From assembly GCA_018269075.1 (NCBI GenBank), contig JAFDVJ010000038.1, positions 1-64,000 on the forward strand: 64,000 nucleotides of DNA. The letters run 5' to 3'. Made by a program: the position numbers and the translations under genes. The stretch is from Acidobacteriota bacterium (GTDB taxonomy: Bacteria > Acidobacteriota > Blastocatellia > Pyrinomonadales > Pyrinomonadaceae). Shown piece by piece: positions 2,715 through 4,441 of this stretch. The notes under the pieces are model-generated. The model searched no databases, had not been told where the DNA came from, and saw nothing but the letters and a program-made list of their open reading frames with translations. Each line of letters opens with the position of its first letter. Positions within the stretch are counted from its first letter, which is position 1.

Positions 2715-2920
2715 TAATTGTAAATTATAGTTAGTGACAAAACCTGTTGGAATAATGAACGTTAAACCCGCGAACGGTTTTTAATCGATCCACTAAACAC
2801 ACTAAAAACACGAAAGAAATTTAGTGTGTTTAGTGTGTTTAGCGGAAGATCAAAAAAGCGCACGCGACCGGAATCGCCGGTTTTTCCAACAAGTTTTGTC
2901 ACTAACTATAAATTACATTA
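2715..2920. repeat. MITE-like nested inverted repeat
   Basis: Arms of about 36 bp (2715-2750 and 2886-2920) are near-perfect reverse complements and share the core TTGTCACTAACTATAA. In the middle (2788-2845) sits a second hairpin built from CACTAAAAA-type 9-bp words. No ORF lies inside. Both arms carry an outward-facing TATAAT/TATAAA. Structurally this resembles a miniature inverted-repeat element, but no target-site duplication was identified. The central hairpin belongs to a family with copies at 4394-4441, 25517-25585 and 43899-43953. Confidence 0.7.
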
Positions 2921-3063: not shown

Positions 3064-3305
3064 TCCGATTCGGTCATTGGAAACCCGTCCGAAACGGGTT
3101 TGCCGCCAACCTTCGGACGGCCCTTTTTCGAGCCGCTCGTCGGGCCGCCGTCGAGCGGTCGCCGACGCCTTCGAAATCGCCGAAAAATTTCGCCTCCGAA
3201 AACCGGACTAACGGACAACCGACTCCGCTCTTTTCTCGCCGGGAACTTATTAGCAAAACTTAAAAAACTTACAATAAACGACTTACAGCTTCGAAAGAGG
3301 CAAAA

Positions 3306-3390
3306 ACTGTGGATATCCACAGTACCCATACTGTGGATATCCACAGTGGGGTACTGTGGGTACCCACAGTATGGTACTGTGGGTACCCAC
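3306..3390. promoter_or_regulatory. Array of four 18-bp palindromes, candidate operator
   Basis: Three perfect 18-bp palindromes, ACTGTGGATATCCACAGT at 3306 and 3330 and ACTGTGGGTACCCACAGT at 3353, are followed by a fourth at 3376 that lacks its last bases. Centres are 23-24 bp apart, near two helical turns, so all face roughly the same side of the helix. TATCCACA matches 8 of 9 bases of a DnaA box, but the GGTACC versions do not. The array ends about 120 bp before the start of the unknown gene at 3512. Confidence 0.55.
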
Positions 3391-3511
3391 GTACTAATTT
3401 AAATAAAAATCCGCTACGATATTTTCGTTCGTCTCCCGGATCGTCTCCCGCACACCGCTTCCGAAGCCGAACGCAGTACAGAATTTCAATAATTTGGAGC
3501 TTAGAAAACGT

Positions 3512-4339
3512 ATGAAAAATGTAAAAACGAACCAAATCGAAAACACAACTGCGGTCACCGAAAACAATGTCGCGATGCCCGCCCCCGAAAAGAAAACCAG
3601 ACGCCGTTCCGAGAGCGGTTTCGCCAAGGTGCTCGAAGCCTTCGCCCGTCTGCGGGCGCTCGCCGTCCACCTCGACCAGACGAGGCTCGGCCCGCCCGAC
3701 GACCTGACGCTCGAAGCGCTCGAACGCGCCTACAACGAAGCCTACGCCCTCCAGACGGCCGTCGGCAACGCCCGCGCGGATTTTCGCACCGCCGCCCTCG
3801 ACCGCCAGCTGCTGATCGACCAGTTCGACGCCATCGCGGCGCAGGCCGTCGGCCAGCTGGCGGGGCGCGGCGCGCATCCCGAAAGCGTCCGCGACGCCCG
3901 CGGCTACGTCGGCAAAATGCGCGGCAAGCGCGTCACGCCGAAAGCCGAGCAGAACCCGGCCTCGCCGCATTTCGACCCGACGGCGCGCAACATCTCGGCC
4001 TCGCAGACGAGCAGCGCGGCGAAGATCCACACCTTTCTCGAATTGATCGACTTTCTCGAAGCGCAGCCCGTTTACGCGACGGTCAGTCTGGCGGGCGTCA
4101 CGACGAGAGAGCTGCGGGCGACGGTCGAACGCGCGCAGTCGCTTCACCTGCTGTCGATCGACAAGGCGGCCGACCTCAAACGCGACCGCGGCCGCCGCAA
4201 CCGGCGGTTCTACTTCGACGAAGACAGCCTCTGCGAGCTCGGCCTGCGCTACAAAGAGCTCGTCAAGGGCGCTTACGGCGTCAGAAGCAATGAATACAAG
4301 GCCGTCCGTTCGATTTCCTTTCGAAAACGTTCCGAATAA
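3512..4339 (+). CDS. Hypothetical protein
   Basis: I do not recognise this 275-residue protein. The N-terminal 35 residues are polar and look disordered (KTNQIENTT, PEKKTRRRSES). Residues about 40-120 are helical and Leu/Ala-rich with Arg and Glu (FAKVLEAFARLRALAV). The last 100 residues contain ELRATVERAQSLHLLSID and a basic stretch, RDRGRRNRRFYFDED, which could fit a winged-helix or other nucleic-acid-binding fold. No signal peptide or membrane segment. The ATG at 3512 is preferred over an in-frame TTG at 3494 because GGAG lies at 3496-3499. It lies directly downstream of four phased palindromes, so it may be autoregulated; that is inference. It is followed by a CACTAAA-type hairpin at 4394. 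Confidence 0.6.
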   Translation: MKNVKTNQIENTTAVTENNVAMPAPEKKTRRRSESGFAKVLEAFARLRALAVHLDQTRLGPPDDLTLEALERAYNEAYALQTAVGNARADFRTAALDRQLLIDQFDAIAAQAVGQLAGRGAHPESVRDARGYVGKMRGKRVTPKAEQNPASPHFDPTARNISASQTSSAAKIHTFLELIDFLEAQPVYATVSLAGVTTRELRATVERAQSLHLLSIDKAADLKRDRGRRNRRFYFDEDSLCELGLRYKELVKGAYGVRSNEYKAVRSISFRKRSE

Positions 4340-4393
4340 GGATCTTCGACGCCCTTCCTTTAAGCTTGTTGGAAAAATGAGCGTTTAAACGAT

Positions 4394-4441
4394 CCGCTAA
4401 AAACACTAAAACCACTAAAGAAATTTAGTGGTTTTAGTGGA
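4394..4441. repeat. CACTAAA-word hairpin
   Basis: CGCTAAAAACACTAAAAC words pair with TTTAGTGGTTTTAGTGG across an AAATT loop. The flank upstream (TTGTTGGAAAAATGA) resembles the flank of the 2.8 kb element (CTGTTGGAATAATGA), so the two copies are related beyond the hairpin. It lies between convergent genes and ends 25 bp from the stop codon at 4466. Confidence 0.6.

What the first reader, a model, noticed from the sequence alone, without database searches (positions are those of the whole stretch)
3306..3390. Four phased 18-bp palindromes upstream of an unknown gene
Perfect dyads ACTGTGG(AT/GT)(AT/AC)CCACAGT with 23-24 bp centre spacing are a strong sign of a cooperatively bound dimeric protein. 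The half-site resembles a DnaA box but the paired, perfect symmetry does not. The adjacent unknown protein has a basic C-terminal segment and could be the binder.
Basis: partly seen in the sequence, partly recalled or inferred. Interest (0 to 1): 0.6.

Follow-up and report, generated by a model that had tools for sequence, protein, structure and literature searches.

The report
Four-site operator of a sensor system
The four palindromes look like a control switch bound by a response regulator encoded elsewhere in the genome, a common type of bacterial gene control, but here multiplied into an unusual four-copy block that sits in front of four different genes.

Summary
The dyads are real: three perfect 18-mers (3306, 3330, 3353) and a fourth (3376-3393) with a degenerate outer end; centres 24, 23 and 23 bp apart. 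The genome (7.4 Mb, Pyrinomonadaceae) holds exactly four such arrays, before at least three unrelated genes, so the adjacent unknown protein is unlikely to be the binder. One array lies inside a gene set: NarL/LuxR-type response regulator (RR), propeller histidine kinase (HK), array, propeller protein, VIT/VWA protein, TPR protein. In relatives TGTGG-N4-CCACA is the most recurrent short dyad around the orthologous RR/HK genes (27 of 36 loci), is denser in genomes with the RR than without, and also precedes SIMPL-domain genes. A -10-like hexamer lies 33 bp from the promoter-proximal dyad in all four own arrays; in relatives with single dyads such hexamers peak at 56 bp (33+23, one array step). 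Best explanation: operator sites of this two-component system's RR, most likely activating. Tandem dyads occur in 1 of 162 class genomes. Binding, direction of control and signal are inferred. New member of a known kind; the four-fold array and its spread to other promoters are the unusual part.

The parts
3306..3323 (.). dyad 1, perfect 18-bp palindrome (distal)
3330..3347 (.). dyad 2, perfect 18-bp palindrome
3353..3370 (.). dyad 3, perfect 18-bp palindrome; its centre lies 56 bp from the -10-like hexamer centre, the offset that also peaks in relatives
3376..3393 (.). dyad 4 (promoter-proximal), 3 mismatches to the 18-mer; centre 33 bp from the -10-like hexamer
3212..3305 (+). AT-rich flank shared with the C55 array and, 89% over 179 bp together with the array, with the C126 array; not clearly shared with C112
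3415..3420 (+). -10-like hexamer TACGAT, 33 bp from dyad 4 centre; same offset in all four own arrays (TACGAT, TACGAT, TAGAGT, GATAAT)
   Evidence: promoter function inferred
3427..3511 (+). presumed 5' untranslated leader; 57 of 60 bases identical to the C55 paralogue over 3424-3483
   Evidence: transcription start inferred
3512..4339 (+). presumed target gene: 275-aa helical protein of unknown function, one of four paralogues in the genome

Best explanation
The array is a four-site operator for the NarL/LuxR-type response regulator encoded at G000:C126:41966-42724, partner of the propeller-type sensor histidine kinase next to it. When phosphorylated, dimers of the regulator bind the ACTGTGG-N4-CCACAGT dyads. 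The promoter-proximal dyad is centred about 42-43 bp before the presumed start site, the position from which LuxR-type activators contact RNA polymerase; the next dyad sits one step (23 bp) further, and the stacked sites raise occupancy. The same element drives the propeller/VWA/TPR operon next to the regulator, the window gene, its C55 paralogue and an unrelated unknown gene at C112. SHOWN: arrays, their four locations, the shared -10 offset, and co-occurrence of the dyad with the regulator in relatives. INFERRED: binding, phosphorylation dependence, activation rather than repression, cooperativity, start sites.
For: (1) One of the four arrays lies inside the RR-HK-[array]-PROP-VWA-TPR gene set; the RR is PF00072 + PF00196 GerE and has no close paralogue in the genome (next own hit 1.1e-13). 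(2) The only exact 18-mers in 39 relatives are G001:C11 (between HK and PROP), G010:C112 (just upstream of the RR orthologue), and G001:C40 with a -10-like hexamer at 33 bp. (3) Unbiased dyad scan of 36 relative loci: TGTGG-N4-CCACA in 27 of 36; the next word of any spacing 20 and of spacing 4 12 (both GC-only words); mean for spacing 4 0.66; the next word with 3 G/C and 2 A/T at spacing 4 has 9. Five more loci have a one-mismatch dyad in place. All 7 genomes with PROP-VWA-TPR have a dyad at or after the HK end, 5 exact and 2 with one mismatch. (4) Density 0.67/Mb in 53 RR+ relatives against 0.35/Mb in 65 RR-; reversed control 0.27 against 0.22; Mann-Whitney p = 2.8e-7 against 0.11. (5) Hexamer at 33 bp in 4 of 4 own arrays; in relatives a peak at 56 bp = 33+23 (7 of 99 flanks at exactly 56; 3 of 2000 rotations reach it at any offset) and a weaker one at 33. 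(6) Exact dyads upstream of the SIMPL gene in 6 of 12 genomes with a clear orthologue.
Against: No binding or expression data. Two genomes without a detected RR orthologue (G008, 90% complete; G006, 74%) still have the dyad before SIMPL. Four of 36 RR/HK loci have no suitable dyad (L075, L076, L078, L101). In the own genome the SIMPL orthologue (84% identical) and the RR itself have no upstream dyad. The 33-bp offset is only weakly enriched in relatives (32-34 bp: 5 of 99; 150 of 2000 rotations reach it). In G001 the dyad at PROP is not at 33 bp from the nearest -10-like sequence. The own promoters are partly homologous, so 4 of 4 is not four independent observations. Seven of the 27 dyads lie 0.3-1.7 kb upstream of the RR and may serve other genes.
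Confidence: 0.72

Rival explanations
1. Same regulator, but the array represses: dimers on dyad 4 cover the -35 region and the array silences the genes until the signal changes.
For: Dyad 4 overlaps where a -35 element would lie; multiple tandem operators are also known for repressors (recalled).
Against: The position near -42 and the recurrence at 56 bp suit activator positions; a site at 56 bp lies too far upstream to block polymerase simply.
Confidence: 0.15
2. Another transcription factor, not this RR, binds the dyad, and the RR/HK operon is merely one of its targets.
For: Dyads persist before SIMPL in two genomes with no detected RR; DNA-binding proteins elsewhere in the genomes were not surveyed.
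Against: The dyad accompanies the RR/HK genes in 27 of 36 relative loci in varied arrangements and is denser in RR+ genomes.
Confidence: 0.1
3. The unknown protein at 3512 is the binder and autoregulates.
For: Adjacency at C101 and C55; basic stretches in the protein.
Against: Arrays before unrelated genes; the gene occurs in 2 of 40 genomes while the dyad is widespread; no family match; predicted helical protein with no confident fold match.
Confidence: 0.03
4. A mobile or replication element (iterons, REP-like repeat, DnaA-box cluster).
For: A portable block of at least 179 bp at 89% identity or more in three places; AT-rich flank; half-site one base from a DnaA box (motif recalled).
Against: Four places only, shared spacing, all with a -10-like hexamer at the same offset; single dyads before regulatory and envelope genes in relatives.
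Confidence: 0.03

Closest known systems
lux box of LuxR-type regulators (V. fischeri type)
   Same: Dyad bound by a GerE-type HTH dimer; PMC7585371 (passages read) gives a 20-nt box located 42.5 nt upstream of the start; in the lux-box sequence as I recall it CTGT/ACAG lie at the same distance from the centre as here.
   Different: Here the regulator carries a receiver domain and has a kinase partner; half-site ends TGTGG; four dyads in tandem; start site not mapped.
UvrY/GacA 18-bp inverted repeat
   Same: 18-bp palindrome bound by a response regulator of the same family; PMC4682653 (passages read) gives TGTAAGNNNNNNCTTACA.
   Different: Different half-site and spacing; there the site is far upstream (about -183 at csrB) of sRNA genes; here close to a presumed promoter and in arrays.
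NarL/NarP 7-2-7 heptamer sites (recalled)
   Same: Same regulator family; inverted repeats of 16-18 bp, several sites per promoter.
   Different: TACYYMT heptamers, not ACTGTGG; no array of identical dyads.
CRP/FNR-class sites (recalled)
   Same: Palindromic, position near -41.5, TGTG...CACA letters.
   Different: Spacing differs (TGTGA-N6-TCACA against TGTGG-N4-CCACA); the linked regulator is a response regulator.

Membership tests
NarL/FixJ (LuxR-type HTH) response regulator, for the proposed binder | Receiver domain | tested here: met
   PF00072 E 2.1e-16, 60.5 bits against cutoff 30.2
NarL/FixJ (LuxR-type HTH) response regulator, for the proposed binder | GerE helix-turn-helix after the receiver | tested here: met
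   PF00196 E 6.1e-9, 35.8 bits against 23.5, residues 146-188 of 253; about 60 residues follow the HTH
NarL/FixJ (LuxR-type HTH) response regulator, for the proposed binder | Cognate histidine kinase of HisKA_3 type beside it | tested here: inconclusive
   HATPase_c above cutoff (34 against 26.4), HisKA_3 just below (23.7 against 24.0), Reg_prop above
Operator of a NarL/LuxR-type regulator, for the array | Bound by the regulator | not testable with these tools
   needs gel shift, DAP-seq or ChIP
Operator of a NarL/LuxR-type regulator, for the array | Conserved dyad near the regulator's own genes in relatives | tested here: met
   27 of 36 loci exact, 32 of 36 with up to one mismatch
Operator of a NarL/LuxR-type regulator, for the array | Fixed position relative to promoter | tested here: inconclusive
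   33 bp to a -10-like hexamer in 4 of 4 own arrays; in relatives 56 bp enriched, 33 bp weakly; start sites unmapped
DnaA-box cluster / origin | Asymmetric TTATNCACA 9-mers at an origin (motif recalled) | tested here: not met
   half-sites read ATATCCACA or GTACCCACA, symmetric, at four places
Dispersed repeat family (REP-like) | Many copies scattered in intergenic DNA | tested here: not met
   15 exact cores, all in four arrays

The most novel reading that the evidence does not exclude
In this one lineage a single ancestral operator of a widespread Pyrinomonadaceae propeller-kinase/NarL-type two-component system was multiplied four-fold with a 23-bp step that equals the distance between two promoter positions used by single sites in relatives. 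The promoter block then spread to expanding families of unknown helical proteins, rewiring an envelope-related regulon into a multi-site, possibly all-or-none switch.
Probability: 0.35. Interest if true: 0.55.

Novelty: new member of a known kind. Interest (0 to 1): 0.42.

Why it matters
It proposes a binding motif and regulon for an uncharacterised two-component system found in 53 of the 118 other family genomes examined, and gives target-gene handles (SIMPL, VIT/VWA, TPR, helical proteins) to genes of unknown function. It is also a compact natural example of promoter copying, testable with purified protein and a reporter. Two searches of the open-access paper library listed no paper on such a system in this group; subscription papers were not searched.

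Tried and rejected
Adjacent protein as binder: rejected. Mobile or dispersed repeat and DnaA cluster: rejected. RNA element: Rfam matches over the array are microRNA hairpin models far below their gathering scores, set aside as chance from palindromes. Fold of the window protein: AlphaFold2 mean pLDDT 82.8, all helical, no Foldseek match at E <= 0.001; PDB sequence search gave at best E 0.12. Wider distribution of the window protein: 4 loci in genome contigs, one Pyrinomonadaceae and three Bacteroidetes/Paludibacter, 23-28% identity, no function. Paper searches: one search listed three papers, none on this group (one, PMC4682653, used for comparison); none; seven, unrelated by title and start of abstract; searches used for comparison. 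Only search listings and the passages were read.

My first propeller-protein query was out of frame; its PROP hits are void and were redone.

Full report
WHAT IS THERE. Three perfect 18-bp dyads (3306-3323, 3330-3347, 3353-3370) and a fourth with a degenerate distal end (3376-3393) lie 5' of an ATG at 3512. At up to 3 mismatches the window has 4 matches against 0.33 expected, and 0 of 100 shuffles reach 4. Centre spacings are 24, 23 and 23 bp, about 2.2-2.3 helical turns, so the dyads are regular but not on one face.

GENOME-WIDE. The own genome (7,405,842 bases, 169 contigs, 86% complete) contains 11 exact 18-mers and 15 exact TGTGG-N4-CCACA cores, all in four arrays: C101 (the window), C55, C112 and C126. 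A search with a 246-bp block finds C55 at 92% over nearly its whole length, C126 at 89% over 179 bp and C112 at 79% over 115 bp. The aligned arrays share spacing. The genes behind them differ: the 275-aa unknown protein (C101), its paralogue (C55), an unrelated 230-aa unknown (C112; it starts about 640 bp after the -10-like hexamer, so its link is less certain), and a propeller-protein operon (C126). A third paralogue (C161, 83% identical) starts 57 bases from a contig end, so its upstream region is missing; the most distant paralogue (C42) has no exact dyad. C101 and C55 are 60 of 60, 51 of 60 and 57 of 60 identical in three consecutive 60-base steps over 3304-3483, but mostly 37-46 of 60 through the coding region after 3604.

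THE LIKELY BINDER. At C126 the gene order is RR, HK, array, PROP, VWA, TPR. Pfam: RR = Response_reg + GerE; HK = Reg_prop propeller, Y_Y_Y below cutoff, HisKA_3 just below cutoff, HATPase_c; PROP = Reg_prop; VWA = VIT + VWA; TPR = TPR repeats. In 39 relatives only two had an exact 18-mer (3 of 40 with the own genome): G001 at the same HK/PROP junction plus one before another gene, and G010 just upstream of the orthologous RR. This pointed to the RR as binder. The RR has orthologues in 53 of 118 other family genomes (set listed, partial ones included). I fetched the loci of 35 of these 53, plus the HK locus of G001: 499,810 bases in 36 loci.

TEST 1, DE NOVO DYADS. Among all 5-bp inverted repeats with spacers 0-10, TGTGG-N4-CCACA is in the most loci, 27 of 36; the next is 20 (CGCGC-N6, a GC-only word); spacer-4 words average 0.66. 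Of words with three G/C and two A/T at spacer 4, the next has 9. Two of the 36 loci (G001, G010) had been pointed out by their dyads; without them it is 25 of 34. By place: 14 within 250 bp upstream of the RR (14 of 35), 7 further upstream (0.3-1.7 kb), 6 at or after the HK end. Five further loci have a one-mismatch dyad near the RR or HK end (L077, L089, L094, L095, L104); four have none that fits (L075, L076, L078, L101). All seven genomes seen with the PROP-VWA-TPR set (own included) have the dyad at or after the HK end, five exact, two with one mismatch.

TEST 2, DENSITY. TGTGG-N4-CCACA occurs 3.3 times per genome (0.67/Mb) in 53 RR+ relatives and 1.3 times (0.35/Mb) in 65 RR- genomes; the reversed control pattern gives 0.27 and 0.22/Mb; Mann-Whitney p = 2.8e-7 and 0.11. 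The own genome was left out of this count. Relatedness among genomes was not corrected for.

TEST 3, PROMOTER GEOMETRY. In all four own arrays a -10-like hexamer is centred 33 bp after the centre of dyad 4 (TACGAT, TACGAT, TAGAGT, GATAAT; 4, 4, 4 and 5 of 6 letters of TATAAT). With a usual start about 7 bp after the hexamer this puts dyad 4 near -42 (inference), matching the lux-box place quoted in PMC7585371 (passages). In 104 oriented flanks of dyads from relatives, hexamers with 5 or 6 of 6 letters peak at 56 bp (8), then at 33 and 55 bp (4 each), mean 0.76 per offset. After removing similar flanks (99 left), 7 fall at 56; 3 of 2000 random rotations reach that at any offset; 32-34 bp has 5, reached by 150 of 2000 rotations. 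As 56 = 33 + 23, the second dyad of the array sits where single dyads sit in relatives. SIMPL sites, which are related to one another, supply at least 5 of the 8 hits at 56 (L169, L172, L176, L182, L188), so these are not all independent.

OTHER TARGETS. Of 20 further dyad regions fetched from 10 relatives, five precede a SIMPL-like membrane protein (L169, L172, L176, L179, L182; PF04402 confirmed for the three tested); four, all of one genus, precede a short membrane-anchored protein (L166, L168, L170, L174), in three of these beside what looks like lysyl-tRNA synthetase (recalled, not tested). The others are singletons, and at least one (L165) lies inside a reading frame. A search with the SIMPL protein finds 12 genomes with a clear orthologue among 60; the exact dyad is upstream in 6 (G003, G008, G059, G058, G009, G006), absent in 4 (G000, G021, G002, G014), undetermined in 2 (G082, G001). 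G008 and G006 have no detected RR; G021 and G014 have neither RR nor any exact dyad.

HOW UNUSUAL. A second dyad 5-30 bp after a first occurs in 1 of 162 class genomes, the own one. The single dyad at the HK/PROP junction is shared by genus mates, so the array probably arose by multiplication there or at a target gene and was copied with its flank (C126, C101, C55); the direction of copying was not determined.

MECHANISM. Most likely the RR, phosphorylated by the propeller kinase on an unknown cue, binds the dyads as dimers and activates. Shown: the sequence facts above. Inferred: binding, phosphorylation, activation, cooperativity. Several target proteins have membrane anchors or extracytoplasmic-type domains, which suggests an envelope or surface response, a weak inference.

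COMPARISON AND VERDICT. This works like other NarL/LuxR-type operator systems (lux box; the UvrY 18-bp repeat, PMC4682653 passages) and differs in half-site, arrayed form and linked regulator. It is a new member of a known kind. The unknown 275-aa protein remains unknown: no Pfam or NCBIfam match, helical model with no confident fold match, remote relatives in Bacteroidetes.

Noticed in passing
window 3424-3483 with L005 and L012: The presumed 5' leader of the window gene is nearly identical to that of the C55 paralogue (57 of 60) although the proteins are about 60% identical, and the C161 copy matches 55 of 55 at its leader end; either RNA-level constraint or recombination between paralogues.
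   Followed up: partly
L006:5306-5998 (G000:C112): The C112 target belongs to a multi-copy family (9 matches in the own genome, matches in 30 of 119 family genomes) of unknown proteins; only this copy has the array.
   Followed up: partly
window 2790-2850 and 4385-4440: Short inverted repeats built on 'tttagtg..cactaaa' flank the gene on both sides; a similar one lies downstream of the C42 paralogue, so they look like a separate dispersed hairpin repeat.
   Followed up: no
L067:936-8417: A 2494-aa TPR protein ends the RR-HK-PROP-VWA set and is kept with it in relatives.
   Followed up: no
L067:15967-16725: The response regulator carries about 60 conserved residues after its GerE helix-turn-helix, which I recall as unusual for NarL-type regulators.
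   Followed up: no
L084, L090, L093, L096, L099: The RR start codon lies only a few bases after the -10-like hexamer, suggesting leaderless transcripts.
   Followed up: no
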